Positions 30,171-52,606 of a stretch of DNA of 64,000 bases are shown piece after piece (position 1 is the first letter of the stretch; the number at the start of each line of letters is the position of its first letter). This stretch comes from Lysobacter silvisoli (GTDB lineage: Bacteria > Pseudomonadota > Gammaproteobacteria > Xanthomonadales > Xanthomonadaceae): NCBI RefSeq assembly GCF_003382365.1, contig NZ_QTSU01000001.1, forward strand, positions 558,001 to 622,000. Reading direction: 5' to 3'. Below the pieces are notes generated by a model. That model saw only the letters and a list, made by a program, of their open reading frames with translations. It made no database searches and was not told where the DNA came from. A program made the position numbers and the translations under genes.

Positions 30171-30203
30171 GGCCGGCCGCGTGGAGCGGCCGGCGAGGCC
30201 GGA

Positions 30204-32196: not shown

Positions 32197-32224
32197 TGCT
32201 TCTTCCGCCGGCAGGCCGCACACG

Positions 32225-32771: not shown

Positions 32772-32820
32772 CCCTGGACTAAGCCAGGCAACCATTTCCA
32801 TCAACGCAGGGGACGTCACG

Positions 32821-35994: not shown

Positions 35995-36091
35995 GGCAGA
36001 GGCGTCCGGGCCGATGCGGCTCGCGTAGCCTTGGCCTTCGGGTCAGAAGCCACGCGATCTGCCGTTCGTGCGACTGACCTCAAATGTTGCT

Positions 36092-36445
36092 TTACGTGAG
36101 CGCGCGTCGAGCCCGTCGATTGAGCTCGGTTGCGGCCACCACCAGCGCTAGTGCACCCAACATCCAGGCGGAAAAGGGAATGTCGAGCGCGACAAACTTG
36201 TCGCCTCTAAAGAGCGGGGGAAAAACGAATATCCCTACTGCAGCTAAGGCGGCCAATATCCGCGATGGATATACGCCCCACAATAGGATGATCAAGCCAA
36301 CACCGAGTAAAGAACCGCGTCTCAAGAACGTGAAGTCGTCACCACTGACGAACCACATGTACCTGGTTTCGAATACAAACCAGATGGCGATAAGCGCAAC
36401 CAATGAAACAGCGATGCACCAAATCCAGAGCGCATGCCGCTTCAT
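36092..36445 (-). CDS. Four-helix membrane protein, possible RHS immunity protein
   Basis: 117 residues from ATG 36445. Helices at about 8-25 (WCIAVSLVALIAIWFV), 48-62 (LLGVGLIILLWGVYPS), 63-78 and 90-108 (FSAWMLGALALVVAATEL). It starts one base after the stop of the RHS-core gene, so the two are cotranscribed, as toxin and immunity genes are. No family recognised. AT content is clearly higher than in the core genome. Confidence 0.6.
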   Translation of the reverse strand: MKRHALWIWCIAVSLVALIAIWFVFETRYMWFVSGDDFTFLRRGSLLGVGLIILLWGVYPSRILAALAAVGIFVFPPLFRGDKFVALDIPFSAWMLGALALVVAATELNRRARRALT

Positions 36446-36446
36446 C

Positions 36447-37178: not shown

Positions 37179-38179
37179 CACTGCTCCCTTTGCGCCTTTT
37201 CGCGCTGAATATGTTGAAGATAGCTTGCTTCCTGCTCGGGTGTCTTCTGAGTCCAGCCGAGCGATTCGGCTTTGGTGAACCACGCCAGATTCTCGCGTGA
37301 CAGGCGCCGGTATTCGTCCTGCAGTTCGGGCGGCGCGTCCGCCACGTTCGGATATTTGGACCGGATGCGCTGCTCTGTCTGGATGTAATACGCATTCGCC
37401 TTCCAGATCATCGCCACCGGATCTTTGGGGTTGGCCTCCAGCGCCAGGTCTGCTACGGCCATGAGCGCGTCGGCGTCCTTTTTCGCACCGTAGTGCTCCA
37501 TCAGTGTGCCGGCGATCGCACCTACGCCCTCGTGCGGCAGTAGCGGGCGCAAGTAAAGGCCATTGTCCAACGCTGCTTCGGTGATGTCGGTTTCGCGCTG
37601 GTAACTGCTGTCGTATTTGAAGCCGCCCGCAGTGGCTTCTACGTTTAGCCACATCTGCTGCTCGTCGTCGGCGAACTTCACCAGTAGGTGGTTAGGCGCA
37701 GTGGCTAGCGCAACGGTCAGGCCCAGTCGTTGGCCCAAGACGAGAAAGAGAGTGGGCATGGAAACGCAGTTGCCTTTGCGCGTCGCCAGGTAGGTGGCCA
37801 GCTGCTTATTCCGGGCGTCGCGCCCGAACGGGTCGTCCAAGTCATAGGTGAACGGCCTGTTCTGATTCCACGGGCCGGGTACGTAGAGCGTCTTGAGCAA
37901 CGCGTCGAGCACCTGACGTGCAGTGGGGTTGGCGGGCACATTGCCGCGCGTGGCTCGCTCCCACTGGTCGAGCTGCCGGCGCACGGCGGCGGTGTTGGTG
38001 GACGGGTCGATGAGGCGATCCACCGTCAGCTTGACGGTGGCGTAATCCACCTTGTCATCAGGGAGCCGGAACTGCGCGCGGAGTGGGGCAAGGTCATCGG
38101 CCGCGCATGCCGCAAAGGCAAGGAACGCCAGCAGCGTGCCCATTCCCCAAGCGGCCCAGTGGGTCGGTCGTAGCCCCAT
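37178..38179 (-). CDS. Transglutaminase-like (SirB1-type) protein with TPR-like tail
   Basis: 333 residues from ATG 38179, with a signal peptide ending near FAACAADD. The core has KGNCVSMPTLFLVLGQRLGL (Cys), TAPNHLLVKF (His) and WLNVEATAGG, the usual transglutaminase-like/SirB1 pattern. The C-terminal part (ADALMAVADLALEANPKDPV, then IWKANAYYIQ) looks like TPR repeats. It starts a three-gene unit with the RHS-core gene and its membrane partner. Probably periplasmic; a real transglutaminase activity is unproven. Confidence 0.75.
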   Translation of the reverse strand: MGLRPTHWAAWGMGTLLAFLAFAACAADDLAPLRAQFRLPDDKVDYATVKLTVDRLIDPSTNTAAVRRQLDQWERATRGNVPANPTARQVLDALLKTLYVPGPWNQNRPFTYDLDDPFGRDARNKQLATYLATRKGNCVSMPTLFLVLGQRLGLTVALATAPNHLLVKFADDEQQMWLNVEATAGGFKYDSSYQRETDITEAALDNGLYLRPLLPHEGVGAIAGTLMEHYGAKKDADALMAVADLALEANPKDPVAMIWKANAYYIQTEQRIRSKYPNVADAPPELQDEYRRLSRENLAWFTKAESLGWTQKTPEQEASYLQHIQREKAQREQ

Positions 38180-38257
38180 ATGCTTCCATACGCCCCTATC
38201 CGTTCTTCGCACCATAGCGCGCCCCGGGGCCAACCGCTACGGCCTTCGCGGATCCGT

Positions 38258-38450
38258 CTAGGGCCTGAGCACCCGACGGTCCAGCAGGTCCAGCAACAGG
38301 CTGGCAACTTCCCGAGCGGCCACCGCCCATTGCTCGTCGTCGCCCGAATAAGGCTCTTGCAGCGGCTCTTCCCTGCCGCCGTGGAAGAGGTTTGTTGCGC
38401 ACCCGCCGCATTGCGACCACCAAGGCTTCGCCATCGTTACGCGGCAAGGG
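38258..38450 (-). pseudogene. Decayed C-terminal half of a HEPN gene
   Basis: Reading the minus strand, AMRRVRN is followed by a one-base insertion (an extra A in the run AACAAACC), after which LFHGG, then PLQEPYSGDDEQWAVAAREV and ASLLLDLLDRRVLRP line up with the C-terminus of the intact HEPN protein at 50318-50794. The insertion falls within the R-N-N-L-F-H motif itself. The first about 95 residues are missing. Identity with the intact copy looks like roughly 60-70 %, so this is an old paralogue and not a recent duplication. Confidence 0.8.
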
Positions 38451-38542
38451 GCTGTTAGCCCATCTGGGTCCCTGTCATGTTCTTGTTTTTCCTCCTCAAA
38501 TGAGGGACGATAATCGGAAGTCACTCGCCCAGACGGAGCCCA

Positions 38543-39181
38543 ATGAACGCCACGGTCCTGTTCGACAATCCCGAGGAGATCGCCAGCCGGCTGGAGCAGC
38601 TGGGTGTGAACGAGAGGGCGCTTCGCGAGGCGATCTATCAAGGCCATCTCCAGCGGACCCGTCTGACCCTCAATCACCCCGTGATCTATCACGGTTTGAA
38701 CATGTGGGGCGAGGTGGTGGCCGCGTTGCGGGAACAGCTTCGCCCTCTGGAATGGGTGAGGGAGGACATCGGTAGCTACGCACTGACGGCCCATGAAGAA
38801 CTCAAGCTGGCCATCAGTGTGGCGTCCGGAGACGAGGCCACTGGCAACCCTTCCGCGCACCCGTCCAACCGTTCCAGGAAGGGGCGGAACACGGTGGAGG
38901 CCATTGAGGCCAATCGCCAGTTGGAGCTCTTCGAACAGCTCCCGCCCGAAGACCAGGTGGAAGAGGGCAAGCAAACCTGGGTGCTGATGCACCACACCGA
39001 CACGTCACGCGGTGAGATTCGCGTGGAGTTGTCTCGCCCGTCGAGCATCGGCAAGGACGGCAAGATCAATGAGTGGGCCGAGCGCATCATTCTGAACAGC
39101 ATTCCGTTCGACGACGATCTGGTGGAGATCTACGCCCCCAGCGGTCCCGACATCGACATCGATATCCGTCGCAAGGCATAA
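38543..39181 (+). CDS. Unknown protein, first gene of the putative defence module
   Basis: 212 residues, with GGAG before the start. The first 90 residues look helical (DNPEEIASRLEQLGVNERAL), a Ser/Arg-rich linker follows (SGDEATGNPSAHPSNRSRKG) and the C-terminal part is beta-rich (RGEIRVELSRPSSIGKDGKI, ending IDIDIRRKA). No family recognised. It ends 10 bases before the XRE-ImmA/IrrE gene, and genes of this kind commonly precede ImmA/IrrE regulators, so the two may act together. Confidence 0.75.
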   Translation: MNATVLFDNPEEIASRLEQLGVNERALREAIYQGHLQRTRLTLNHPVIYHGLNMWGEVVAALREQLRPLEWVREDIGSYALTAHEELKLAISVASGDEATGNPSAHPSNRSRKGRNTVEAIEANRQLELFEQLPPEDQVEEGKQTWVLMHHTDTSRGEIRVELSRPSSIGKDGKINEWAERIILNSIPFDDDLVEIYAPSGPDIDIDIRRKA

Positions 39182-39191
39182 CGAGGTTGTT

Positions 39192-40361
39192 ATGTTCAAT
39201 GCACAGCGACTGACCCTTGCGCGAAAGCGCAGGGGGATGAAGAAGCGTGAGCTCGCCGAGCGGATTGGCTTGACGGAGAAATCGGTCTCGAACTACGAGG
39301 CCGGCACGCAAGAACCAGAAGGCGGCACGCTCAAGAAACTCTCAGAAGCGCTTCGGTTCCCCGAAGCGTTCTTCTTTGGCGATGACCCGGAGGTTCCTAC
39401 CCCCGATGTCGCAAGCTTTCGCTCGCTATCCAAAATGACCGCCTCCCAGCGCGATTCGGCACTGGGTGCCGGTGCCGTTGCGTTGCTTCTCAACGATTGG
39501 ATCGAGTCCAGGTTCCAGTTGCCTGAGCCGGATGTGCCGGATTTGGGGCGAGAGGGCGGCGCAATCACTGGTGCTGGTGGTGATCAGGGATCGCACGAAC
39601 CCGAGGGATATCCGTCTTGCGCGTCTGCTCAGGATCCGGAGGTCGCGGCCGGGATGCTTCGGGCCCATTGGGGTATCGGCGAGTTGCCCGTGAAGAACAT
39701 GATCGCATTGCTCGAATCGAAGGGCGTTCGTGTGTTTTCGCTGGCGATCGATGCCAAGGAAGTGGACGCGTTTTCGATGTGGAAGGGGGGGCGCCCCTAT
39801 ATCTTCCTGAATACCTTCAAGTCCGCGGAGCACTGCCGGTTCGACGCTGCGCACGAGCTGGGGCACCTGGTGCTCCATCAGCACGCGCAGCCGCAAGGAC
39901 CGGACCTGGAGCGCGAGGCCAACGCGTTTGCTTCTGCGTTTCTGATGCCCAAATCAAGCGTGCTGGCCAACGCACCCAGGTCCGCGACGCTTCCAAGCCT
40001 GGTTCGCCACAAGAAGCATTGGCTGGTGTCGGTGGCAGCGCTGAACTACCGGCTGCACGCGCTTGGGCTAACCACGGATTGGACATACCGAACGCTATGC
40101 ATCCAGCTCGCACAGGCAGGCTACCGCGTGAAAGAGCCGGAAAGCATCAACCATGAAAAGTCTCTTGTGCTTGAGAAGGTGTTCTCGGCGCTTCGGGAGG
40201 AAGGATTGAACAAGGTCGACGTGGCCCGACAGCTTTCAATTGCGCCGGAAGAGATCAATGAATTGACGTTTGGGCTCATGTTGAACGGCCTCAAGGGAGG
40301 GCGAGGCTTGGATGCAGCGCCGAAGCCGAGCCGGGCATCCCTTCGCTTGGTAAAGGGGTAA
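39192..40361 (+). CDS. XRE HTH-ImmA/IrrE metallopeptidase regulator
   Basis: 389 residues. The XRE helix-turn-helix covers about 5-60 (KRELAERIGLTEKSVSNYEA). A Gly/Asp-rich linker near 110-150 leads to an M78 peptidase domain with HELGH at 221-225 (FDAAHELGHLVLH) and the third ligand in LEREANAFASAFLMP. Such proteins both bind DNA and cleave repressors, and they control mobile elements and defence genes. It lies 45 bases before the methyltransferase gene and is the likely switch of the module. Confidence 0.93.
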   Translation: MFNAQRLTLARKRRGMKKRELAERIGLTEKSVSNYEAGTQEPEGGTLKKLSEALRFPEAFFFGDDPEVPTPDVASFRSLSKMTASQRDSALGAGAVALLLNDWIESRFQLPEPDVPDLGREGGAITGAGGDQGSHEPEGYPSCASAQDPEVAAGMLRAHWGIGELPVKNMIALLESKGVRVFSLAIDAKEVDAFSMWKGGRPYIFLNTFKSAEHCRFDAAHELGHLVLHQHAQPQGPDLEREANAFASAFLMPKSSVLANAPRSATLPSLVRHKKHWLVSVAALNYRLHALGLTTDWTYRTLCIQLAQAGYRVKEPESINHEKSLVLEKVFSALREEGLNKVDVARQLSIAPEEINELTFGLMLNGLKGGRGLDAAPKPSRASLRLVKG

Positions 40362-40406
40362 TGGATTGCGAATGTCTGATTTGATCTCTGTGGGACGAGC
40401 CGGCGC

Positions 40407-43169
40407 ATGAACGCGGTAGAAATTGAAGAGGCCCTGTCGGCCCTGGCCATTGAACCGTTCGATGGGACAGAGTTTCCGTTCGCGTTCCTGCTGGCCTTCG
40501 GCAACAAGGAAACGACCATAAAGCGGCTGCGCAAGGGTGACAGCAACGCCTCGGACGTGCCTGGCGGGGTGCTCCAGCGCAACAACATCCACATCGCGAC
40601 CTGCGCGCCGGGCAAGGTCCGCGAAACGTTCCAGGCTTTGCGGACCAGCACAAAGACGGCCCAAGCCAAGGCCAAGTTCATCCTGGCGGCCGATGGCGAG
40701 ACGCTGGAAGCTGAGGACCTGATCAGCGGCGAACCGCTGGCCTGTCCTTTTCCGGAGTTCCCCGACCACTTCGGCTTCTTCCTGCCGTTAGCCGGGATTT
40801 CCACCATCAAGGAGATCAAGGACAACCCGGTGGACGTGCGCGCCACCGGGCGGCTGAACAAGCTCTACGTCGAGTTGCTGCAGAACAACAAGGACTGGGC
40901 CACCGACGAGCGCCGGGCGGACATGAATCACTTCATGGCTCGCCTGGTGTTCTGCTTTTTCGCCGAAGACACCGACATTTTCCAGGGGGTCAGTCTGTTT
41001 ACCCGAACCCTGGAGCAGATGACCGAGCGCGATGGCTCGAACACCCATGAGGTGCTCGAAACCATCTTTCGTGCCATGAACGTTCAAGGGGATGAGCGCG
41101 CCGCCGCCAAGCTGCCGCGATGGGCGGAACAATTCCCCTACGTCAACGGAGGCTTGTTCTCAGGTAGCACCGACGTGCCGCGGTTCACCCGCACAGCTCG
41201 CGCATATCTTTTGCGCGCGGGCGAATTGAACTGGAAGGAGATTAACCCGGACATTTTCGGATCCATGATTCAGGCTGTGGCTGATGAGGAGGAGCGCGGC
41301 GCTCTGGGAATGCACTACACCAGCGTTCCTAACATCCTTAAGGTGCTGAACCCGCTGTTTCTCGACGACCTGCGCGCCCAGTTGGAAGCCGCTGGGGACA
41401 ATAAGGTGAAGCTGTTGAACCTGCGCAAGCGCATGGCCAGAATCCGCGTGTTCGACCCGGCCTGTGGTAGCGGCAACTTCCTAGTCATTGCGTACAAGCA
41501 GATGCGCGCGATTGAGGCGGAGATCAACCAGCGTCGGGGCGAGCCAGATTTGCGGACAGAGATCCCGCTGACCAACTTTCGTGGCATCGAACTGCGCGAC
41601 TTCCCCGCGGAAATCGCGCGTTTGGCACTCATCATCGCTGAGTTCCAGTGCGACGTACTCTACCGCGGCCAGAAGGAAGCCCTGGCTGAGGTGCTGCCCT
41701 TAGACGCGCAGAACTGGATCACTTGCGGCAACGCCTTGCGCCTGGACTGGCTGGCTATCTGCCCACCGACTGGAACGGGTGTGAAGCTGGTGGGCGATGA
41801 CTTGTTCAATACGCCTCTCAACCAAGCCGAGATCGACTTCGAGAATGAGGGTGGGGAGACATACATCTGCGGCAACCCGCCGTATCGCGGAAGCAAATGG
41901 CAATCCACTGATCAGAAGGTGGACCTGGCGAGAGCATGGGCCAAGCATCCCAAACTTGCTAAGACCACGGATTTCGTGACTGGATGGTTCGCACGCTTCT
42001 TTGACTACGCGGACAGCGTGCCCAATGCGGTTTGTGCCTTCGTTGCCACGAATAGCGTGTGTCAGGGGCAACAGGCAATCGACGTATGGCCGGTAGCGTT
42101 TCAGCGTGGTTGCGAAATTCGCTTTGCCCATACGTCGTTCAAGTGGGCCAATCTGGCCAGCAATAACGCGGGCGTGACCGTTGTGGTCGTCGGACTTGGC
42201 AAAGCGTCGGCCGAGCCGAAGAAGCTGTATCAGGATGACTTGCTTAAGCAGTGCTCGGTAATTGGTCCCTACTTGGTGCCGGATAGTCTGGCTTATGTGC
42301 AAAAGGCCAGTGAACCCATTGGGGAGCAGTCAATCATGCTGTTCGGCAACATGCCGCGCGACGGAGGCCATCTGTTTCTGGACAGCGATGTGGCCGCAAA
42401 GGTCATGGCCGAAGATGCAGTTGCACGGCCTTTCATCAAGCGGTTCGTTGGCTCGGATGAATTGATAAATGGCAGGCAGCGATACTGTCTTTGGATCGAG
42501 GATAACGAAGTCGAGGAAGCAAGGGGAAGTCAGTTCGTTGTGGAACGATTGAAGCTGGTGGCGGAAAGTCGCAGCAAGTCGGATGCAGAATCCACACGCA
42601 GCTTCGCCAGACAGCCGCACCGTTTCGTACAAATCGCCGGATCCGCTAGAAATTCGGTCATCGTGGTCCCGCGCGTTTCGTCCGAAAGTCGGCCATTCCT
42701 GCCGGTTGACTACCTGACATCTGACTTCATTATCGGTGATCGGAATTTTGCACTCTATGACGCCCCGCTTTGGAATCTTGCCTTGGTTGCCTCGCGGCTT
42801 CACTGGGTCTGGATTGGAGCGGTATGTGTTCGACTGGAAATGCGATTCTCGTATTCCAACACCTTGGGCTGGAATACGTTCCCTGTCCCCAAGTTGACCG
42901 AACAGAACAAGGTCGACCTGACGCGCTGCGCCGAAGACATTCTGCTTGCGCGCGAAGTTCACTTTCCGGCCACCATTGCCGACCTTTATGACCCAGAAGG
43001 AATGCCAGATAACCTTCGTCTGGCCCACGAGCGCAACGACGAAGTGCTGGAGCGGATCTACATCGGCCGGCGTTTTCGCAACGACACCGAGCGCTTGGAA
43101 AAGTTGTTCGACCTCTACACCAAGATGACGGTCGGCCAGTCAAGACTGCAGAAGGGGAAGGCGAAATGA
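40407..43169 (+). CDS. MmeI-like DNA methyltransferase without a visible nuclease
   Basis: 920 residues, close to MmeI length. SAM motif I is Asp350-PACGSG (DPACGSGNFLV) and motif IV is Asn490-Pro-Pro-Tyr (NPPYRG), the pair of gamma-class N6-adenine methyltransferases. A helical spacer (150-340) and a C-terminal target-recognition part (540-900) fit the MmeI layout. In MmeI the first 150 residues hold a D-ExK nuclease; here they read KETTIKRLRKGDSNASDVPG and contain no such motif, so the protein should modify and not cut. The cutting role would fall to the downstream genes. Confidence 0.88.
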   Translation: MNAVEIEEALSALAIEPFDGTEFPFAFLLAFGNKETTIKRLRKGDSNASDVPGGVLQRNNIHIATCAPGKVRETFQALRTSTKTAQAKAKFILAADGETLEAEDLISGEPLACPFPEFPDHFGFFLPLAGISTIKEIKDNPVDVRATGRLNKLYVELLQNNKDWATDERRADMNHFMARLVFCFFAEDTDIFQGVSLFTRTLEQMTERDGSNTHEVLETIFRAMNVQGDERAAAKLPRWAEQFPYVNGGLFSGSTDVPRFTRTARAYLLRAGELNWKEINPDIFGSMIQAVADEEERGALGMHYTSVPNILKVLNPLFLDDLRAQLEAAGDNKVKLLNLRKRMARIRVFDPACGSGNFLVIAYKQMRAIEAEINQRRGEPDLRTEIPLTNFRGIELRDFPAEIARLALIIAEFQCDVLYRGQKEALAEVLPLDAQNWITCGNALRLDWLAICPPTGTGVKLVGDDLFNTPLNQAEIDFENEGGETYICGNPPYRGSKWQSTDQKVDLARAWAKHPKLAKTTDFVTGWFARFFDYADSVPNAVCAFVATNSVCQGQQAIDVWPVAFQRGCEIRFAHTSFKWANLASNNAGVTVVVVGLGKASAEPKKLYQDDLLKQCSVIGPYLVPDSLAYVQKASEPIGEQSIMLFGNMPRDGGHLFLDSDVAAKVMAEDAVARPFIKRFVGSDELINGRQRYCLWIEDNEVEEARGSQFVVERLKLVAESRSKSDAESTRSFARQPHRFVQIAGSARNSVIVVPRVSSESRPFLPVDYLTSDFIIGDRNFALYDAPLWNLALVASRLHWVWIGAVCVRLEMRFSYSNTLGWNTFPVPKLTEQNKVDLTRCAEDILLAREVHFPATIADLYDPEGMPDNLRLAHERNDEVLERIYIGRRFRNDTERLEKLFDLYTKMTVGQSRLQKGKAK

Positions 43170-43933
43170 GCCTTCTTGCTTTCCAGATGTGGGAGCTCAT
43201 GCGGCAAGACTGGATGGCGGAACATCGTTTCTATGTCGAGCAAGCTCGTAAGAGGTTGCTGTCTCAGTTCGACAGTATGGAAGAAGAAGCCGATAGGGCC
43301 GCCGAGGAGCACTTAGGGCAGATTTCGCAATTCTTCGATCCTGATGTACACGATGAGGTCGATTTTTATGAGTCGGCTCACGATAAGGGCATTGAGTTCT
43401 ACCAGCTGTTGAGTGACATGCAGGAGCGAACGCGACTGAGTGTCGTCGCCGGGATGTATCACGAATGGGGCAAGAAGCTGCGGGAGTGGCTTACGAGGGA
43501 GCTGCGCGGCTGGCATCGCGGTGAGAATGTCCTAAGGTCCATCTGGAAGGCCGATATCCCTTCAGTACTCGACTTGCTTTTCGTGTTCGACTTCGACGCC
43601 AGAGGGGTCACCGGATACAAGCGATTGGACGCGATGCGCCTTGTCGTGAATGTATTCAAGCATGGGGATGGGCCTTCGCTCGACGAACTGAAGGAGAAGT
43701 ATCCCGAGTTCGTTCCAGACCCGCTTGGCGGTGATGGGGAATATCGATCCCGCTTCCTCGACCACACCAATATGAAGGTCACGGACGAACACCTCGACCA
43801 GTTTTCGGAAGCGATTCTGGAATTCTGGCAGGCGGTTCCCAAGGAGCTGTGGCTCAAGCATGAAGAGGTAGAGGTCCCCAAGTGGTTCGAGAAGGCATAT
43901 CTAAAGGACAGAGCGGAACATGAGCGCGCCTGA
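43166..43933 (+). CDS. Unknown alpha-helical protein between methyltransferase and helicase
   Basis: 255 residues. It overlaps the methyltransferase stop by four bases (ATGA) and the helicase start by 14, so it is made with both. Largely helical: MAEHRFYVEQARKRLLSQFD, ERTRLSVVAGMYHEWGKKLR. The segment AMRLVVNVFKHGDGPSLDEL recalls HEPN-like ends, but R-x7-H does not fit the R-x4-6-H rule. No family recognised. Its fixed position suggests an adaptor or effector in the complex. Confidence 0.75.
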   Translation: MSLLAFQMWELMRQDWMAEHRFYVEQARKRLLSQFDSMEEEADRAAEEHLGQISQFFDPDVHDEVDFYESAHDKGIEFYQLLSDMQERTRLSVVAGMYHEWGKKLREWLTRELRGWHRGENVLRSIWKADIPSVLDLLFVFDFDARGVTGYKRLDAMRLVVNVFKHGDGPSLDELKEKYPEFVPDPLGGDGEYRSRFLDHTNMKVTDEHLDQFSEAILEFWQAVPKELWLKHEEVEVPKWFEKAYLKDRAEHERA

Positions 43934-46025
43934 AAACCCGACAAACCAGTACACCGTTCCGTCGGTGTCCATCGCCACGGCGCGAACGGGGGCTTCCAGC
44001 AAGGTCAACGCGTTGGGCATGCGTCCCATGCAAGAGCGCGCCTATGCCAAGCGTGGCGAGCAACACCTGCTTATCAAGTCACCGCCGGCGTCGGGCAAAT
44101 CGCGGGCGCTGATGTTCATTGCCTTGGACAAGATCCAGAACCAGGGCTTGAAGCAGGCCATCATCGTGGTGCCCGAGCGCTCGATTGGCGGCAGCTTCTC
44201 CGACGAGAAGCTCACCGAGCAGGGTTTCTGGGCCGACTGGGTGGTTAGGCCGCAATGGAACTTGTGCAACGCTCCGGGCGAGGACAACGGTAAGGTGGCA
44301 CCGTCCAAGGTCAAGGCCGTGGGGGTTTTCCTGGCCAGCGACGACACGGTGCTGGTGTGCACGCACGCCACGTTCCGGTTCGCTGTGGACGAGTTCGGCA
44401 TCGAGGCCTTCGACGGCCGCCTGATCGCCATCGACGAGTTCCACCACGTCAGCAGCAACCCGGACAACAAGCTGGGCAGCCAACTGGGCCAGTTGATTGC
44501 GCGCGGTCAAGTCCACGTGGTGGCCATGACCGGCTCCTACTTCCGCGGCGACACCGTGGCAGTGCTGGCGCCCGAGGACGAGGCTAGGTTCGAGACGGTG
44601 ACTTACACCTACTACGAACAGCTCAACGGCTACACCTACCTCAAGTCGCTCGACATCGGCTATTTCTTCTATACCGGTCGGTATCTGGACGCCATCATGA
44701 AGGTGCTGGACCCGTCGCAGAAGACCATCGTCCACATCCCCAACGTCAACGCTCGCGAGAGTCTGAAAGACAAGCACAAGGAAGTGGACGAAATCCTGGA
44801 GGCCTTGGGCGAATGGAAGGGCCGCGACGAGGCCACAGGCTTCCACCTCATTGAGCTCAAGGACGGGCGCACCATCAGGGTGGCCGACCTGGTCGACGAC
44901 AGTGACGCGACGCGGCGCTCCAAGGTGCTTTCCGCCTTGAAGGACCCCGCCCAGAAGGACAACCGCGATAACGTCGACATCATCATTGCCTTGGGTATGG
45001 CCAAGGAAGGGTTCGATTGGATCTGGTGCGAACATGCGCTGACCATCGGCTACCGCAGCAGCCTGACCGAGATCGTGCAGATCATCGGGCGGGCCACCCG
45101 TGATGCTCCGGGCAAGGAGCGCTCCCGCTTCACCAACCTCATCGCCGAGCCGGCCGCGGACGAGGCGGCTGTGGTCGATGCGGTGAACGACACCTTGAAG
45201 GCGATCGCCGCCAGCCTGCTGATGGAACAGGTGCTAGCGCCGCGTTTCGATTTCACGCCGAAGAACCTGGGCCCGAAGGAGGGGTTCGACTACGGCGAAG
45301 GCGGCTACCAGGAAGGCAAGTCCAACGTAGGTGTGAACGCCAAGACCGGCGAGGTCCACGTGGAGGTCAATGGACTCGCTGTCCCAAAGTCTGCCGAAGC
45401 CGCACGGATCTGTCGCGAGGACTTGAACGAGGTCATTACTAGTTTCATCCAGGACAAGACCGCCCTGGAGCGGGGCCTATTCGACAAGGACAACACGCTG
45501 CCTGAGGAGCTGACCCAGGTCCAGTTAGGCAAGATCGTGCGCGATCGTTATCCCGAGTTAAATGATGAAGACCAGGAGGCGGTGCGCCAGCACGCCATTG
45601 CGGTGTTGAACATAACCCAACAGGCAAAGCAGGCCTTGGCCGTAGCAGAGGAGAAGGCTGAGTACGGCAGTACCTCGCTGATCGATGGCGTGCGCAAGTT
45701 CGTCAACGTCCGGGATCTGGACATTGACCTGATCGACCGTATCAACCCGTTCGACGCCGCTTACGCTGTGCTGGCCAAGGCGATGGACGAGAAGGTCCTG
45801 CGCCAAGTCCAAGCCAGCATCGCTGCCAAGCGCGTGGCTATCCCACTCGATGAGGCCCGCGACCTGGCCAAGCGAGCACTGCTGTTCAAGAACGAGCGGG
45901 GCAGGGCGCCGGACATCAATTCGCCAGATGCCTGGGAGCGCAAGATGGCCGAGGGCGTGGCCGCACTCGCGCGGCACCTCGCTCAGCAGAAGGCCGCCGA
46001 GGTACGCGGGGGCACGAATGGCTGA
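43920..46025 (+). CDS. DEAD/DEAH-type SF2 helicase
   Basis: 701 residues. Walker A SPPASGKS at 54-61 (motif I), DEFH at 172-175 (motif II), AMTGSYF (motif III), and QIIGRATRD (motif VI), where the second RecA domain ends. A C-terminal region of about 280 residues, partly helical (EEKAEYGSTSLIDGVRKF), is unlike common helicases. The start overlaps the previous gene by 14 bases and the stop overlaps the GIY-YIG start by eight. SF2 helicases of this kind drive restriction and defence complexes. Confidence 0.9.
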   Translation: MSAPENPTNQYTVPSVSIATARTGASSKVNALGMRPMQERAYAKRGEQHLLIKSPPASGKSRALMFIALDKIQNQGLKQAIIVVPERSIGGSFSDEKLTEQGFWADWVVRPQWNLCNAPGEDNGKVAPSKVKAVGVFLASDDTVLVCTHATFRFAVDEFGIEAFDGRLIAIDEFHHVSSNPDNKLGSQLGQLIARGQVHVVAMTGSYFRGDTVAVLAPEDEARFETVTYTYYEQLNGYTYLKSLDIGYFFYTGRYLDAIMKVLDPSQKTIVHIPNVNARESLKDKHKEVDEILEALGEWKGRDEATGFHLIELKDGRTIRVADLVDDSDATRRSKVLSALKDPAQKDNRDNVDIIIALGMAKEGFDWIWCEHALTIGYRSSLTEIVQIIGRATRDAPGKERSRFTNLIAEPAADEAAVVDAVNDTLKAIAASLLMEQVLAPRFDFTPKNLGPKEGFDYGEGGYQEGKSNVGVNAKTGEVHVEVNGLAVPKSAEAARICREDLNEVITSFIQDKTALERGLFDKDNTLPEELTQVQLGKIVRDRYPELNDEDQEAVRQHAIAVLNITQQAKQALAVAEEKAEYGSTSLIDGVRKFVNVRDLDIDLIDRINPFDAAYAVLAKAMDEKVLRQVQASIAAKRVAIPLDEARDLAKRALLFKNERGRAPDINSPDAWERKMAEGVAALARHLAQQKAAEVRGGTNG

Positions 46026-47205
46026 CATGGAAGACGAAGACCTGCTAGCCGCGCTAGGTGTCGAAGTTGCGCCCATCAAGACTGGCAGTCACACACCCCA
46101 GGAAGAACGGCTTATCGCTGGATTCGAAGACATCCTGCGCTTCGTCGAGATCCATGGTCGTGCGCCTGAGCACGGCGAAGAACGCGACATTTTCGAGCGG
46201 CTCTACGCAGCGCGGCTTGACCGCCTACGTGCCCTCACGTCCGCGCGTCCGCTACTCGTGCCAATGGACACGCCTGGCCTGCTGGCCACGGCGCCTAGCA
46301 GAGCCACGCCCGAGGCGGCCGAAGGGCTAGATGACGAAGCCCTGCTGGCCGAGTTGGGCTTGGCCGGCACTGCCGGCAGCGACGACATCACCCAACTCCG
46401 CCATGTCCGTCCCTTCGAAGAGCGCAAGGCTGCCGAGGACATCGCCAACCGCACCAAGTGCGAGGATTTCGAGCGCTTCCAGCCGCTGTTCGAGCGGGTC
46501 GAGACCGACCTGAAATCGGGTGTGCGCAAGACCTTGCGCTTCGGGCGCGACGCTAGTGTGGCCGAGGGCAATTTCTTCATCCTCGGTGGGCAAATGGTCT
46601 ACGTCGCCGAGATGGGAGAGACGTTCCGCACGCCCAACGGCGAGCCCGACGCCCGTCTGCGCGTCATCTTCTCCAACGGGACGGAAAGCAACCTGTTGCA
46701 GCGCTCCCTCCAGCGGGCACTCTACAAGGACGACACGGGCCGGCGCATCACCGATGCGGACGCCGGGCCGTTGTTCGGCGACACGATGGAGCCTGACGAC
46801 ATCGTAAATGGGACCATCTACGTCCTGCGCAGCCTGTCCGGCCACCCGTTCGTGGCCGAGCACCGCGAACTCATCCACAAGATCGGCATTACCGGCGGCA
46901 AGGTCGAGACCCGAATTGCCAACGCTGCTACCGATGCGACCTACCTGTTGGCCAAGGTGGAGGTGGTGGCCACCTACAAGGTGTCCAACCTCAACCGCAC
47001 GCGCCTGGAGAACCTATTCCACCGCATCTTCCAGGAAGCCCGGTTGGATCTGACGATCGAGGACCGGTTCGGCAATCCGGTCCATCCGCGCGAGTGGTTC
47101 CTGGTGCCGCTCCACGTCATCGACGAAGCGGTGAAACGCATCCAGGACGGCACGATCACAAATTGCATTTACGATCCGTCGCGAGCGGCGTTCGTGGAAC
47201 GCTGA
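46018..47205 (+). CDS. GIY-YIG nuclease (T5orf172-like)
   Basis: 395 residues from ATG 46018. The C-terminal nuclease reads GTIYVL (265-270), then HKIGIT (287-292), with Arg299 and a Glu in LENLFH (331), the expected tyrosine-arginine-glutamate pattern. The first 260 residues hold an Ala/Glu-rich helical region and a beta domain (NFFILGGQMVYVAEMGE, LRVIFSNGTESNLLQRS) that could bind DNA or a partner. It overlaps the helicase gene by eight bases, so the two are made together. It is the best candidate for the cutting subunit. Confidence 0.9.
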   Translation: MADMEDEDLLAALGVEVAPIKTGSHTPQEERLIAGFEDILRFVEIHGRAPEHGEERDIFERLYAARLDRLRALTSARPLLVPMDTPGLLATAPSRATPEAAEGLDDEALLAELGLAGTAGSDDITQLRHVRPFEERKAAEDIANRTKCEDFERFQPLFERVETDLKSGVRKTLRFGRDASVAEGNFFILGGQMVYVAEMGETFRTPNGEPDARLRVIFSNGTESNLLQRSLQRALYKDDTGRRITDADAGPLFGDTMEPDDIVNGTIYVLRSLSGHPFVAEHRELIHKIGITGGKVETRIANAATDATYLLAKVEVVATYKVSNLNRTRLENLFHRIFQEARLDLTIEDRFGNPVHPREWFLVPLHVIDEAVKRIQDGTITNCIYDPSRAAFVER

Positions 47206-47305
47206 TCGAGAGTGAGGGTAGGGTTTTCGACTAATTGGCTATATCGCGACACGGATCCGTACCTTGTATGGCCGGGGGAGGAAGCTTGATCGATGGGAAG
47301 GTCAA

Positions 47306-50284
47306 ATGATTAGTCGCGGCTCGGAATGGCATCGATGGGATCCGCATATCCATGCGCCCGGCACCATTCTCAACAACCAATTCGACGGCACCCATCCATG
47401 GGAGACCTATCTCACAACCTTGGAAGGGCTGACCCCGAAGATCGAAGCAATCGCCGTCACCGACTACTACGTCACTGACACCTATGAGGAGTTGCTCAAA
47501 CACAAGGCCGCGGGCCGGCTGCCCTGTGTACAACTGCTTTTTCCAAATATCGAGCTTCGCCTCGACGTGGCGGCGAAGTCGGGCTTCGTTAACATCCACC
47601 TCCTGGTTAGCCCGGAAGACCCCAATCATCTTGTCGAGGTGAAACGCATCCTCAAGCGCCTGCAGTTCGGCGCGCACAACGATCGATTTGACTGCACTCG
47701 CGAGGAGCTAATCAAACTGGGAAAGCGCGCCGATCCGACGATCACCGACGATGGCGCAGCTCTCCGGCATGGTGCGACTCAGGTCAAAGTCAACTTTGAC
47801 CAGCTTCGCAAGGTCATCGCTGAAAGCGAATGGGCGAAGAAGAATATCTTGATTGCTGTGGCTGGTGGTTCAGGTGACGGCACATCGGGCCTGCGGCAGG
47901 CTGCCGACGCAACCGTGCGCCAAGAGATCGAGAAGTTCGCCCATATCATTTTTTCGAGCAGTCCCGTCCAGCGAGAATTCTGGCTGGGCCAGCGAGCCGG
48001 CATGACGGTGGGGGAACTTCGCTCGCGATATGACGGCTGCAAACCATGCCTGCATGGAAGCGACTCTCACGACCAGGAGTCCGTGGGACAGCCCGTCGGC
48101 AACAGGTTTTCGTGGATCAAGGGCGCTCTGGAATTCGATGCCCTGCGTCAGGCGTGCATCGATCCCGAGGGGCGCGCCTATGTCGGCGAACAGCCGCCTC
48201 TATCGACTTTGCCGTCACAAGTTATCTCGCATGTCAGGATCGACAACGCGGACTGGGCGGCCACACCAGATATCCCACTCAACTCCGGCCTAGTGGCCAT
48301 TATTGGCGCGAGAGGATCAGGCAAGACCGCTCTGGCCGACATGATCGCGGCCGGCTGCGATGCGATCTCCTCATCCGGTTGGGATGCGGACGAGAACATT
48401 AGCCCCTCGTTTCTAGCTCGGGCGCGCCGGTTGATGGGCGACGCGACGACGACGCTCACCTGGGGCGGTGGCGCGACCGTCACGCGCTTCCTCGATGGCA
48501 GAGACGCCAACGGCCACATGTCGTTCCCGCGTGCCAGGTATCTTTCTCAGCAGTTCGTCGAGGAGCTTTGCTCGGCAAAAGGCGTTTCCGATGGCCTGGT
48601 AGACGAGATCGAACGTGTAATCTTCGAGTCACACTCGCAGGATGATCGCCAGTGGACACTCGATTTTGCAGAACTGCGCGACCAGCAGACCGCGCGGTTT
48701 CAGCAGGCGCGTGAGCGCGAGGCCGAAGCGATCTCCGACATCTCCGACAGAATCGCCACTGAGCTCGAAAAGGAGAGCCTCGTCGCCACGCTAACAACGC
48801 AGGTCGCGCAAAAGAAGAAGCTGGTTGCGAACTACACAGCCGATCGCGCCAAACTTGTCGTCAAGGGAACCGAGGAACAGGTGGCCCGACACACCCTGCT
48901 CAGCGAGGCGGCTCAGAATCTTAAGAACAAGATCCAAGCGTTTGGGAACCAGCGCCGCACCTTCGTCGCCTTGCAGGACGAAGTTCGGAGCATGCGCGCC
49001 ACTGGCGCGCCCGAGATGCTCCGCCAAGCTCAGGCGCGACACGCCAGCAGTGGCTTCAGTGCCAAACAGTGGGACGAGTTTCTGCTGGTCTACAAGGGCG
49101 ACGTCGACAAGAGCTTGGCGGGTTATATCGCGTGGGCCGATGGTGAGGTCAGTAAACTCACGGGTGCTCCTCCGCCGTCCGGTGACCCGAACGTAGCGCT
49201 GATCCCCGACAATGCCGATCTCTCAGCGCTCCCGCTCGCACCGATCGCTGCCGAAATGATTCGCCTCGAAGCGCTGTTCAGCGCGGATAAGCTGGTTCGC
49301 GAACAATACACGGCACTGACCGGCCGCATCGCACAGGAAAATTCCGCGCTCAAGACCCTTGAGGCACGGCTCACCGATGCGCAAGGCGCCACGGCGCGCC
49401 GGAAGGACCTCCAGACGAACCGCGATGACACCTATGGCCGAGTCTTCGAGGCGATCATCAACGAACAGAATGCGCTGGCTGGCCTCTACGCGCCGCTGAT
49501 GGCTCGGCTTGCTGCGTCTTCGGGAACGCTCCAGAAGCTTGGCTTCTCGGTCCGCAGGATCGCCGACGTCCAAGCGTGGGGTTCGGTTGCGGAGAGAGAA
49601 CTCCTAGATCTGCGCAAGACCGGCCCCTTCCAAGGCCGCGGCGCACTGATCAGGGCCGCGGCTGAGACACTCAAGCCGGCGTGGGAAACTGGCTCGGCGG
49701 CCGAGGTTCAGGCTGCCATGACCACATTCATGTCCAAATACCTGAGGGACTTGCTGTCGCATGCGCCTTATGCGCCGACCCAGCAGGCCGAATTTAGGGC
49801 TTGGTCAAAACAGTTCGCGCACTGGCTTTTTGGCACCGACCACATCACTGTGCGGTACGAGATTTCGTATGACGGCATTGACATCCGCAAGCTCTCACCA
49901 GGCACCCGCGGGATCGTGCTGCTGCTCCTCTATCTTGCTCTCGATGATTCAGACGATCGGCCGCTGATCATTGACCAGCCTGAAGAGAATCTCGACCCGA
50001 AGTCCGTATTCGACGAACTTGTGGCGCTCTTCATCGCGACGAAGGCGAAGCGCCAGGTCATCATGGTCACGCACAATGCCAACCTTGTCATCAACACCGA
50101 CGCCGACCAGATCATCGTAGCGACAGCAGGACCACACCCGCCCGGCGGTCTTCCACCTATAAGCTATGTGGCGGGCGGGCTGGAGAGCGTGGCAATTCGG
50201 AAAGCCGTCTGTGACATTCTGGAGGGCGGTGAGGAAGCCTTCCGGGAGCGAGCGCGACGGCTTCGAGTTCGCCTAGACCGATAA
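47306..50284 (+). CDS. TrlF-type PHP-ABC ATPase
   Basis: 992 residues from ATG 47306, with GGAAGG before it. A PHP-type metal-dependent phosphoesterase domain covers 1-300: HIH (14-16), AVTDYY, NIHLLVSPED and GSDSHD (251-256). An SMC/RecF-like ATPase follows: Walker A GARGSGKT (334-341), a long coiled coil around 470-700, the signature LSPGTRGIVLLLL, Walker B IIDQPEENLDP and H-loop MVTHNAN. TrlF-type proteins are nuclease-ATPase fusions of defence islands. The start is 100 bases after the GIY-YIG gene, same strand. Confidence 0.92.
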   Translation: MISRGSEWHRWDPHIHAPGTILNNQFDGTHPWETYLTTLEGLTPKIEAIAVTDYYVTDTYEELLKHKAAGRLPCVQLLFPNIELRLDVAAKSGFVNIHLLVSPEDPNHLVEVKRILKRLQFGAHNDRFDCTREELIKLGKRADPTITDDGAALRHGATQVKVNFDQLRKVIAESEWAKKNILIAVAGGSGDGTSGLRQAADATVRQEIEKFAHIIFSSSPVQREFWLGQRAGMTVGELRSRYDGCKPCLHGSDSHDQESVGQPVGNRFSWIKGALEFDALRQACIDPEGRAYVGEQPPLSTLPSQVISHVRIDNADWAATPDIPLNSGLVAIIGARGSGKTALADMIAAGCDAISSSGWDADENISPSFLARARRLMGDATTTLTWGGGATVTRFLDGRDANGHMSFPRARYLSQQFVEELCSAKGVSDGLVDEIERVIFESHSQDDRQWTLDFAELRDQQTARFQQAREREAEAISDISDRIATELEKESLVATLTTQVAQKKKLVANYTADRAKLVVKGTEEQVARHTLLSEAAQNLKNKIQAFGNQRRTFVALQDEVRSMRATGAPEMLRQAQARHASSGFSAKQWDEFLLVYKGDVDKSLAGYIAWADGEVSKLTGAPPPSGDPNVALIPDNADLSALPLAPIAAEMIRLEALFSADKLVREQYTALTGRIAQENSALKTLEARLTDAQGATARRKDLQTNRDDTYGRVFEAIINEQNALAGLYAPLMARLAASSGTLQKLGFSVRRIADVQAWGSVAERELLDLRKTGPFQGRGALIRAAAETLKPAWETGSAAEVQAAMTTFMSKYLRDLLSHAPYAPTQQAEFRAWSKQFAHWLFGTDHITVRYEISYDGIDIRKLSPGTRGIVLLLLYLALDDSDDRPLIIDQPEENLDPKSVFDELVALFIATKAKRQVIMVTHNANLVINTDADQIIVATAGPHPPGGLPPISYVAGGLESVAIRKAVCDILEGGEEAFRERARRLRVRLDR

Positions 50285-50317
50285 TTCACTGGTGTCGCTC
50301 GCATTGCAGCGAATTGC

Positions 50318-50794
50318 CTACGGCCTGAGCTGCTGGCGTTGTATTAGATCAAGCAATAGCGTAGCCACTTCACCCGCGGCCAGTGCCCACTCCTCATCAT
50401 CGCCCACGTAGAGCTCTTCCAGCGGATCCTCTTTCCCTCCGTGAAAGAGGTTATTGCGCACCCGGCGCATGGCCTCGATAAGGGCCCGGGCGTCAGAAGC
50501 GTGGAGGGGTAGTTCTCGAAAGTGAGTCAGGTTCCGGCCTTGGATGGTGGCAACCACTTGCACCTTAGGCCGGTTGCGTGTGCCGCCTAGTAGCTTGGTC
50601 CGCGCGGATGCCGGCACTCGATCGAGGAAGGTAGGCGTTGGCAGCCGGTCCACCGCGTCCTCCACGGCGCGCCAGTTCGCCTTGGCTGACTGGTAGGGCC
50701 CGGTACCCGTAAATTCGGGAATACGTTTGAGCTCGAATTCCAACATGCCGAAGGTTCGTAGTAGTGCGTAGGCAGTTGGCTGAGAAACGGGCAT
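50318..50794 (-). CDS. HEPN-like protein
   Basis: 158 residues from ATG 50794. The HEPN ribonuclease motif R-N-N-L-F-H stands at 113-118 (Arg-x4-His), followed by GGKEDPLEELYVGDDEEWAL and two helices. HEPN proteins are RNases in toxin and abortive systems. The gene converges on the TrlF gene (34 bases apart). A decayed paralogue lies at 38258-38450, on the other side of the seven-gene module. Confidence 0.85.
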   Translation of the reverse strand: MPVSQPTAYALLRTFGMLEFELKRIPEFTGTGPYQSAKANWRAVEDAVDRLPTPTFLDRVPASARTKLLGGTRNRPKVQVVATIQGRNLTHFRELPLHASDARALIEAMRRVRNNLFHGGKEDPLEELYVGDDEEWALAAGEVATLLLDLIQRQQLRP

Positions 50795-50929
50795 GCAACC
50801 ATCCTAGCTGACGGTCTCACAAGGCGGGTATGACCGTGCCGCTGTTACGCACCGCACCACCGCGAGTGTTCTTTGGGTTCGCAGAGCTGTCGGCAATCCG
50901 CTGTTTTGCAGTACGTTTGCAGGACAACA

Positions 50930-50953
50930 AAAAACCGCCGTGAGGCGGTTTTT
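50930..50953. terminator. Bidirectional terminator below tRNA-Pro
   Basis: AAAAACCGCC (50930-50939), loop GTGA, GGCGGTTTTT (50944-50953). T-runs on both sides make it active in both directions. On the minus strand it ends the tRNA-Pro transcript 20 bases downstream of its 3' end. Confidence 0.9.
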
Positions 50954-50973
50954 GCTTAAGCCATTGATTTTAT

Positions 50974-51050
<77 letters not shown>

Positions 51051-51226
51051 ACAGCTGAGCCGACAATTCTAGCGACGGCCGGCGGCGGGGGCAAGAGGGT
51101 CCGTGCGGCGACGCATGCGGCCCACGCTGAGGCGGCCGGACCGGTGGGTACGGCCGCGGCCGGCCGCTAAACTGTGCGCCTTGCGCCCGCGCGTTGCGGC
51201 GCCCCGCCTGTCTTTCGGAGTTCCGC

Positions 51227-52606
51227 TTGATCAAGCCCCGCACCCCCGCCGGCGTCATGGAGCTGTTGCCTCCCGACCAGATCGCGTTCCAGCGCATGCT
51301 CGATACGATCCGCCGCAACTTCGAGCGGTTCGGTTTCGTGCCGGTGGAAACGCCGGTGATGGAGCTGTCGGAGGTGCTGCTGACCAAGTCCGGCGGCGAG
51401 ACCGAGCGCCAGGTGTATTTCGTCCAGTCCACCGGCGCGCTGAGCAAGGCCGGCGACGGCGAGGGCGTGCCCGAACTGGCGCTGCGCTTCGACCTGACCG
51501 TGCCGCTGGCGCGTTACGTGGCCGAGCACGAGCACGAACTGGCGTTCCCGTTCCGCCGTTACCAGATGCAGCGCGTGTACCGCGGCGAGCGCCAGCAGCG
51601 CGGCCGTTTCCGCGAGTTCTACCAGTGCGACATCGACGTGATCGGCAAGGACAGTCTGAGCGTGCGCCACGACGCCGAGATGCCGGCGGCGATCTACGCG
51701 GTGTTCGCCGAGCTGGACATCGCCAAGTTCACCATCCAGCTCAACAACCGCAAGCTGCTGCGCGGCTACTTCGAAGCGCGCGGCGTGGCCGACGGCGAGC
51801 TGCAGGCGCGGGTGCTGCGCGAGGTCGACAAGCTCGACAAGCGCGGCGCCGAGTATGTGCGCGAGACCCTGACCGGGCCGGAGTTCGGCCTGGCCGCCGA
51901 CGCGGTCGCGGCGATCCTGGAATTCGTGGCGGTGCGTTCGACTTCGCACGAGGACGCGCTGGCGCGCCTGGCCGCGCTGGGCGAGGGCAACGAATCGCTG
52001 CGCCAGGGCGTGGCCGAACTGCGCGAGGTGCTGGAGCTGGTGCGCGCGCTGGGCGTGCCGGAAACCCATTACGCGCTGAACTTCTCGATCGCGCGCGGCC
52101 TGGACTACTACACCGGCACCGTCTACGAGACCACCCTGGACGAATACCCGCAGATCGGTTCGGTCTGCTCCGGCGGTCGCTACGACGACCTGGCCAGCCA
52201 CTACAGCAAGTCCAAGCTGCCCGGCGTGGGCATTTCGATCGGCCTGACCCGGCTGTTCTGGCAGCTGCGCGAGGCCGGCCTGGTCGACAGCGCGTCGAGC
52301 ACGGTGCAGGTGCTGGTCACGCAGATGGACGCCGCGCACCTGCCGCAGTGCATCGCGGTGGCCAACGAGTTGCGTCACGGCGGCCTCAACACCGAAGTGG
52401 TGATGGAGCCGTCCAAGCTGGGCAAGCAGTTCAAGTACGCCGACCGCGCCGGCATCCGCTTCGTGGTGGTGCTGGGCGAGGACGAGATCGCCAAGGGCAC
52501 GGTCACGGTCAAGGACCTGCGCCGCGAGGACCAGTTCGAAGTCGCGCGCGCCGAGCTGGCGCGCACCCTGCGGGTCGAACTGGAGCAGTCGCGGGCGATG
52601 AAATGA
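51227..52606 (+). CDS. hisS: Histidyl-tRNA synthetase
   Basis: 459 residues. The start is TTG 51227, six bases after CGGAG; the product begins [18 protein letters not shown], as in other HisRS. Class II motifs: '[20 protein letters not shown]' (motif 2), the HisA signature [25 protein letters not shown], and motif 3 [13 protein letters not shown]. The C-terminal anticodon-binding domain starts near 340 ([19 protein letters not shown]). Near tRNA-Pro and before the ammonia-lyase gene, and about 5 kb before the his operon. Confidence 0.96.

What the first reader, a model, noticed from the sequence alone, without database searches (positions are those of the whole stretch)
38543..50284. Seven-gene defence-like module: XRE-ImmA/IrrE, MmeI-like methyltransferase, unknown, helicase, GIY-YIG nuclease, TrlF-type ATPase
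All seven genes lie on one strand; four are overlapping in reading frame (methyltransferase/unknown/helicase/GIY-YIG). A modifier, a helicase and a separate nuclease are split over three coupled genes, instead of one MmeI enzyme, and a PHP-ATPase and a peptidase regulator are added. I know of no named defence system with this exact composition; that novelty is from memory only and must be searched.
Basis: partly seen in the sequence, partly recalled or inferred. Interest (0 to 1): 0.85.

Follow-up and report, generated by a model that had tools for sequence, protein, structure and literature searches.

The report
Three stacked phage-defence systems, not one
The seven genes are real, but they look like three known kinds of bacterial defence standing side by side (a toxin-antitoxin pair, a split restriction system and a lone ATPase); the new part is that the restriction operon carries an uncharacterised gene at a spot where its relatives carry many different nuclease-like or toxin-like genes.

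Summary
The seven same-strand genes exist as described, but not as one module. Genes 1-2 match PADLOC's RosmerTA toxin and antitoxin. Genes 3, 5 and 6 match the described DnmA(YeeA)-YeeB-YeeC cluster: MmeI-like methyltransferase without nuclease motif, SF2 helicase, GIY-YIG nuclease. Gene 7 is a TrlF-family PHP/ATPase. In 80 loci fetched by the helicase, methyltransferase and nuclease are present in 78 each (gaps lie at contig ends); in the flanks held, RmrT and TrlF were found in none by tblastn. One further locus has a TrlF-type fragment beside the nuclease gene. The unexpected result is gene 4: it lies at the yeeA-yeeB junction, where 38 of 78 evaluable loci carry extra genes (YhcG/DUF1016 nucleases, Schlafen-type, GmrSD, PIN, RhuM, Fic, toxin-antitoxin pairs), while the yeeB-yeeC junction shows no such genes. 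Content turns over quickly on a helicase tree (26 occupied/empty changes; seven for seven gene-4 carriers). Gene 4 has no Pfam, NCBIfam or PADLOC match; its confident all-helical model has no PDB match at E<=0.001. Best reading: a split type I-like restriction system with an embedded accessory effector, possibly a guard like PrrC, flanked by two independent systems. Phage defence here is untested.

The parts
38543..39181 (+). gene 1: RmrT, putative RosmerTA toxin (212 aa)
   Evidence: PADLOC RmrT PDLC03935 E 1.6e-67 over 4-211; no Pfam or NCBIfam match at E<=0.01
39192..40361 (+). gene 2: RmrA, XRE-type HTH + M78 (ImmA/IrrE) peptidase antitoxin (389 aa)
   Evidence: PADLOC RmrA E 5.2e-164; HTH_3 and Peptidase_M78; HELGH at residue 221
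40407..43169 (+). gene 3: YeeA/DnmA-type MmeI-like DNA methyltransferase without the MmeI-type nuclease motif (920 aa)
   Evidence: five MmeI Pfam domains; MmeI structure 5hr4 E 3.7e-133, aligned from residue 89 on; DPACGSG and NPPY present, no D-x(8-11)-E-x-K; three MmeI-type enzymes whose next annotated genes are not yeeB/yeeC have that motif
43166..43933 (+). gene 4: accessory gene in the yeeA-yeeB slot, unknown all-helical family (255 aa)
   Evidence: PHROG 19541 E 1.4e-59; no Pfam/NCBIfam/PADLOC; same slot in 4 of 78 evaluable loci and in L006 and L033; AlphaFold pLDDT 92.4
43920..46025 (+). gene 5: YeeB-type SF2 helicase (701 aa)
   Evidence: DEAD Pfam; ASGKS, DEFH, QIIGRATR; 68% identical to a plasmid protein annotated 'DNA helicase restriction/modification system component YeeB'
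46018..47205 (+). gene 6: YeeC-type nuclease with C-terminal T5orf172/GIY-YIG domain (395 aa)
   Evidence: MUG113 and T5orf172 (on the longer ORF from 45850); GTIYVL, KIG, RLENLF
47306..50284 (+). gene 7: TrlF-family PHP + ATPase protein (992 aa)
   Evidence: NCBIfam NF045780 708.6 bits against cut-off 350 (on the longer ORF from 47264); HIH, GSDSH, GARGSGKT, IIDQP

Best explanation
The block is a defence island of three independent systems. (1) RosmerTA: the toxin RmrT is held by RmrA, an HTH plus zinc-peptidase antitoxin, and is released on infection. (2) A DnmA-YeeB-YeeC restriction-modification system that works like a split type I enzyme: the MmeI-like protein recognises a site and methylates adenine on one strand; on unmodified DNA the YeeB helicase translocates and the separate GIY-YIG protein YeeC cuts. 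(3) TrlF, a single-gene PHP-ATPase. Gene 4 sits in a cargo slot between the methyltransferase and helicase genes and is most likely an accessory antiviral effector co-expressed with the system, plausibly a second line released when the restriction system is inhibited, as PrrC is. Shown: the families, the gene order, the conserved core, the missing MmeI-type nuclease motif, the slot and its turnover. Inferred: methylation, cleavage, toxicity, phage defence and the role of gene 4.
For: Families. Core conserved: 80 loci fetched by yeeB hold yeeA in 78 and yeeC in 78; the four without one lie at contig ends. RmrT 0/80 and TrlF 0/80 by tblastn; at least 2 kb upstream of yeeA is held in 58 of 78 loci and at least 3.2 kb downstream of yeeC in 62 of 78. 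RmrT is rare (2 of 274 class genomes including this one; 3 of 33 yee-bearing genomes, outside the locus ranges held). TrlF is over the cut-off in 17 of 274 class genomes. Slot: 38 of 78 occupied at yeeA-yeeB; at yeeB-yeeC 0 of 78 with more than 150 nt, one (L060) with a yeeC-like fragment before the full yeeC. Cargo families. Turnover: 26 occupied/empty changes on 81 rows, gene 4 seven changes for seven carriers. A repeated yeeA tail lies inside the slot of L029, L081 and L100, as expected if cargo arrives by recombination between yee loci. Literature, passages read: DnmA-YeeB-YeeC (PMC7261158, PMC9973331), RosmerTA (PMC10440598), PrrC embedded in an R-M operon (PMC12707154, PMC3874165, PMC3710099).
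Against: In B. subtilis dnmA-yeeB-yeeC gave no protection against three phages (PMC9973331) and deletion of dnmA did not change transformation by plasmid from E. coli (PMC7261158), so an intact operon may be a methyltransferase with inactive partners. One other genome (L032, G652) has a TrlF-type PHP fragment directly after yeeC, so a yee-TrlF association is not excluded. The 80 loci are those nearest to this helicase, not a random sample, and about a quarter have short flanks. No B. subtilis sequence was aligned directly. Nothing shows that gene 4 is toxic or antiviral. Slot turnover on the tree is no higher or lower than for shuffled labels, so it shows quick exchange but no tie between cargo and host lineage.
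Confidence: 0.82

Rival explanations
1. All seven genes form one coordinated multi-layer module, with RmrA as regulator and TrlF as sensor of the restriction system.
For: One strand, short gaps; a TrlF-type PHP fragment follows yeeC in one other genome; HTH-ImmA proteins lie in the flanks of 5 of 80 yee loci.
Against: RmrT and TrlF in 0 of 80 loci by tblastn; the five HTH-ImmA hits are 28-34% identical to RmrA and all lie on the strand opposite to the yee genes.
Confidence: 0.08
2. Gene 4 is a core subunit of this variant (for example a bridge between methyltransferase and helicase), not cargo.
For: Overlaps both neighbours; found in the same slot in seven of 81 tree rows, three of them added because they carry it.
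Against: 40 of 78 loci have nothing in the slot; the nearest relative by helicase (S. maltophilia, L037) has an empty slot; gene 4 relatives stand without yee genes in the held flanks of 19 of 19 viral contigs and of six of six plasmid loci fetched by gene 4.
Confidence: 0.1
3. Genes 3, 5 and 6 are a decayed system in which only the methyltransferase still works, as proposed for B. subtilis.
For: No phage effect of single deletions in B. subtilis (PMC9973331, passages).
Against: Helicase, GIY-YIG and methyltransferase motifs are present and the frames are open; the same paper reports that dnmA and yeeB deletions raised sensitivity to some phages in Vibrio crassostreae.
Confidence: 0.15
4. The cargo slot is an alignment or gene-calling artefact.
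For: Slot ends come from tblastn ends and a stop codon search, and 250 nt was my cut; one slot start (L081) was misplaced by a repeated yeeA tail and corrected.
Against: The 38 occupied slots are 389-2867 nt long and hold ORFs, many with Pfam families; the same kind of measurement gives no insertion of another gene at yeeB-yeeC.
Confidence: 0.03

Closest known systems
DnmA(YeeA)-YeeB-YeeC of Bacillus subtilis and Vibrio crassostreae
   Same: MmeI-like methyltransferase without nuclease motif, then SF2 helicase, then T5orf172/GIY-YIG protein, same order
   Different: Here an unknown gene overlaps both yeeA and yeeB; no methylation or restriction data; no direct alignment to the B. subtilis or Vibrio proteins was made
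RosmerTA
   Same: RmrT + HTH/ImmA-peptidase RmrA pair, both PADLOC models
   Different: Its neighbours look incidental as far as tested; the action of this RmrT type is unknown to me
Type IIL enzyme MmeI
   Same: Methyltransferase, spacer, TRD and C-terminal domains
   Different: No D-x9/10-E-x-K nuclease motif; helicase and nuclease are separate proteins
Ppl (anti-phage protein)
   Same: C-terminal ATPase part similar (E 7e-34)
   Different: 116.9 bits against a cut-off of 1000; the TrlF model fits almost full length
PrrC in the EcoprrI type IC operon
   Same: An accessory gene embedded inside a restriction-modification operon
   Different: Gene 4 has no ABC-ATPase domain and no complete HEPN motif; no evidence of an anticodon nuclease

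Membership tests
DnmA-YeeB-YeeC | MmeI-family methyltransferase that lacks the N-terminal nuclease motif | tested here: met
DnmA-YeeB-YeeC | SF2 helicase and T5orf172/GIY-YIG gene downstream on the same strand | tested here: met
   one extra gene interposed here
DnmA-YeeB-YeeC | sequence similarity to the B. subtilis proteins themselves | not tested
   no B. subtilis locus was fetched; Bacilli relatives L068, L069, L078 have the same order
DnmA-YeeB-YeeC | N6-adenine methylation at an asymmetric site; restriction | not testable with these tools
   needs long-read methylation calling and plating assays
RosmerTA | RmrT toxin gene next to RmrA (HTH + ImmA peptidase) | tested here: met
   10 nt apart
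RosmerTA | toxicity neutralised by RmrA; phage defence | not testable with these tools
   bench test needed
TrlF family | NCBIfam NF045780 score over cut-off | tested here: met
   708.6 bits, cut-off 350
Ppl | NCBIfam NF042955 score over cut-off | tested here: not met
   116.9 bits, cut-off 1000
Type IIL MmeI restriction enzyme | N-terminal D-x9/10-E-x-K nuclease in the same chain | tested here: not met
HEPN RNase (for gene 4) | R-x(4-6)-H motif and HEPN fold | tested here: inconclusive
   invariant N162-x2-K165-H166-G167 but no conserved R four to six residues before that H; no PDB fold match at E<=0.001

The most novel reading that the evidence does not exclude
DnmA-YeeB-YeeC loci carry a dedicated, rapidly exchanged cargo slot between methyltransferase and helicase genes, filled through recombination at the yeeA 3' end by unrelated effectors that act as a second line when the restriction arm is blocked; gene 4 founds a new all-helical effector family that has entered the slot many times.
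Probability: 0.3. Interest if true: 0.68.

Novelty: new variant of a known kind. Interest (0 to 1): 0.45.

Why it matters
The yee cluster is widespread, yet its role is disputed: no phage phenotype in B. subtilis, a phenotype in Vibrio (both as told in PMC9973331). If its yeeA-yeeB junction is a slot for exchangeable effectors, the slot is a ready list of candidate antiviral genes (YhcG, Schlafen-type, PLD-like, gene 4), and tests that delete only yeeA, yeeB or yeeC would miss the cargo's share. The principle is known for type I operons (PrrC, RhuM, Doc; PMC3710099, passages); here it would extend to a different split system, with a measured turnover.

Tried and rejected
Seven-gene module: rejected by neighbour tallies. 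MmeI-type single enzyme: rejected by the missing nuclease motif. HEPN identity of gene 4: suggested by N..KHG, not supported by Foldseek against PDB or BFVD at E<=0.001 (the best-supported BFVD row, an uncharacterised phage protein, has E 0.14 and TM 0.43-0.48), by a profile search of PDB sequences at E<=10 or by Pfam (three families, one member each). A single-sequence PDB search of gene 4 gave one hit at E 0.14, taken as chance. tRNA-Pro attachment repeat: no exact repeat of 14 nt or more between 29501-38600 and 50251-51300. TrlF in print: 0 papers with TrlF, ATPase and phage. The slot in print: the listings showed no account of a cargo slot in yee loci; I opened passages of PMC3710099 and PMC10121019 from them; PMC9973331 says only that uncharacterised proteins lie around dnmA and might be further members. 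The Vibrio crassostreae study was not among the eight rows listed and is cited through PMC9973331; Morgan 2009 is not held and is cited through PMC7261158. The first 168 residues of gene 3 alone found no PDB sequence.

Full report
Observation. They lie in a 32-51 kb stretch of lower G+C that ends at a tRNA-Pro.

Families. Gene 1 is RmrT and gene 2 RmrA by PADLOC (E 1.6e-67 and 5.2e-164), that is a RosmerTA pair. Gene 3 has all five MmeI Pfam domains. Gene 5 is an SF2 helicase and gene 6 ends in a T5orf172/MUG113 (GIY-YIG type) domain. Gene 7 scores twice the NCBIfam TrlF cut-off (708.6 against 350 bits). Gene 4 has no match in Pfam, NCBIfam or PADLOC, only PHROG 19541 of unknown function. Expected catalytic motifs are present in genes 2, 3 (methyltransferase), 5, 6 and 7 (that these motifs are the catalytic ones is recalled, not from a call).

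Genes 3, 5 and 6 are the DnmA(YeeA)-YeeB-YeeC arrangement. The helicase is 68% identical to a plasmid protein annotated 'DNA helicase restriction/modification system component YeeB'. PMC7261158 (passages) says that DnmA belongs to MmeI homologues that lack the endonuclease motif and are flanked by conserved yeeB and yeeC, citing Morgan 2009, and that a type I-like system has been suggested. PMC9973331 (passages) shows conserved order and no effect of single deletions on three phages in B. subtilis, and reports that dnmA and yeeB deletions raised sensitivity to some phages in Vibrio crassostreae. I tested the motif here: three MmeI-type methyltransferases whose next annotated genes are not yeeB/yeeC (L163, L164, L165) have D-x9/10-E-x-K, while the window protein and four yee-type relatives lack that stretch.

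Is the block one module? Twelve class genomes found by the helicase (13 of 369 with this one) and six plasmid loci show no RmrT, RmrA or TrlF in the held flanks by tblastn at E<=1e-4. The genome-contig scan with the helicase profile gave 550 confirmed relatives from a capped list, of which the best 80 were kept. In these, yeeA-like is in 78, yeeC-like in 78 (the four without one lie at contig ends), gene 4 in 4, RmrT in 0, TrlF in 0, and a weak HTH-ImmA relative of RmrA in 5, all five on the other strand. At least 2 kb upstream of yeeA is held in 58 of 78 loci and at least 3.2 kb downstream of yeeC in 62 of 78. A TrlF profile over the 92 loci (80 and 12) found one clear match, a PHP-domain fragment directly downstream of yeeC in L032 (E 1.8e-17), which tblastn had missed, and two weak ones (E 1.6e-4 in L041, 5e-4 in L057, no single stretch under 0.3). 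The L032 case stands against a complete lack of association. TrlF is over the cut-off in 17 of 274 class genomes and RmrT occurs in 2 of 274, this genome counted in both. Of the 80 yee loci I asked for the genomes of 34, of which 33 were held; RmrT was found in 3, outside the locus ranges held. So RosmerTA and TrlF are most likely neighbours, not parts.

The slot. Between yeeA and yeeB, 40 of 78 evaluable loci are empty (under 250 nt, most overlapping; L076 has about 175 nt) and 38 carry one or more ORFs (38 again when measured from the main yeeA match). Pfam at E<=0.001 on 47 of the 49 ORFs seen (one in L088 and one in L081 were not scanned): YhcG/DUF1016 in 8, SLFN_AlbA_2 in 6, GmrSD_N in 2, PIN in 2, and RhuM, Fic, DUF559, CcdB, YafQ, BrnT, RelB, ParE and PDDEXK_4 in one each; the answer showed 25 of 33 families, and I leave out the small DNA-binding domains and some minor matches. 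PADLOC names the YhcG group PDC-S02, a candidate defence family. Six more (L070, L094, L095, L104, L107, L114) look like PLD-type nucleases by eye; no PLD family was among those shown, and L070 scanned alone gave a sub-threshold PLDc_2 match (19.4 bits, cut-off 27). At the yeeB-yeeC junction no locus of 78 has more than 150 nt; in L060 this was measured to a yeeC-like fragment that stands before the full yeeC, so that locus has about 0.3 kb there. Among the 11 class-genome loci with both genes, 7 slots were occupied and 4 empty. A second copy of the yeeA tail lies inside the slot in L081 and L100 (of 38 occupied slots tested) and in L029, which fits entry of cargo by recombination at the yeeA 3' end.

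Turnover. On a quick helicase tree of 83 rows (81 with a state: 78 unselected plus the window, L006 and L033, which were added because they carry gene 4) occupied/empty changes 26 times (shuffled mean 27.1), gene 4 seven times for seven carriers (shuffled mean 6.8) and YhcG six times for eight (shuffled mean 7.8, lowest 6). Kinship thus hardly predicts the content. The nearest relatives of the window's helicase, S. maltophilia L037 and L042, have empty slots. The cargo labels on the tree are mine, one per locus, and by eye.

Gene 4. Relatives: 5 of 398 phylum genomes including this one, the others 24-26% identical; 134 plasmid records; the six plasmid loci fetched by gene 4 (L007, L011, L136-L139) hold no other module gene, whereas L006, fetched by the helicase, has the whole yee operon with gene 4; 19 IMG/VR contigs, none with yee genes in the held flanks. 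Invariant over 18 relatives are H99, K103, R106, W127 and N162-x2-K165-H166-G167-x-G169 among others. AlphaFold gives pLDDT 92.4, pTM 0.86, nearly all helix. Foldseek finds nothing at E<=0.001 in PDB or BFVD, the profile nothing in PDB sequences at E<=10. A diverged HEPN protein is possible (the N..KHG motif resembles part of the HEPN motif) but not shown.

Mechanism. Modification and recognition by gene 3, translocation by gene 5 and cutting by gene 6 follow from the families and from the type I-like proposal quoted above; none is shown here. For gene 4 the best precedent is PrrC, embedded in a type IC operon, kept silent by the enzyme and released when phage T4 inhibits it (PMC3874165, PMC12707154, PMC3710099, passages). 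PMC3710099 also reports RhuM-like and Doc genes in R-M loci beside PrrC-like genes and proposes multi-level defence. The cargo list here has the same flavour. A RosmerTA system of Gordonia phage Kita has been shown to defend against some coliphages (PMC10440598, passages).

Verdict. The composition is known in its parts; the claim of a new seven-gene system fails. What remains of interest is the cargo slot and the new family of gene 4. I found no account of such a slot in my searches, which cover only the open papers held.

Noticed in passing
window 38258-38447 (-) and 50318-50794 (-): The block is flanked by two related stretches on the minus strand: a complete 158-aa ORF after gene 7 with an RVRNNLFHGG (HEPN-like by eye) motif and a PHROG 19013 match (E 9e-6), and a broken relative just before gene 1 (135 nt at 71% identity plus an adjoining 23 nt at 87%). 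The block may have come in between two paralogues.
   Followed up: partly
window 31546-32370 (-), 33712-35994 (+): A MobA/MobL relaxase match covering half the profile (1-113 of 224) and a 760-aa DotA/TraY-like membrane protein (by eye, no Pfam match) suggest the remains of a conjugative element left of the block.
   Followed up: partly
window 36450-37652 (-): An ORF whose middle part reads like a signal peptide followed by a short Rhs core tail (by eye), with a further C-terminal part; no Pfam match.
   Followed up: no
78 yee loci among L037-L116: The yeeA-yeeB junction is a cargo slot: 38 of 78 occupied; no foreign gene seen at yeeB-yeeC in 78.
   Followed up: yes
L081 8473-8553, L100 slot, L029 7098-7172: A second copy of the yeeA tail lies inside the slot, a possible footprint of how cargo enters.
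   Followed up: partly
L032 12467-12988: A TrlF-type PHP-domain fragment starts 50 nt after yeeC, without an ATPase part: a second case of TrlF beside yeeC, here incomplete.
   Followed up: partly
L063 9360-10001, L081 9367-10002, L082 8633-9259: A second cargo ORF with a hydrophobic N-terminus (about 210 aa) follows gene 4 in two loci and stands alone in a third.
   Followed up: no
L060 12170-12436: A yeeC-like 5' fragment in another frame precedes the full yeeC.
   Followed up: partly
L033 and L086 slots: A 276-277 aa protein with an FRNYIHP stretch (HEPN-like, by eye in L033) shares the slot with gene 4 in L033; a relative stands alone in L086, without a Pfam match.
   Followed up: no
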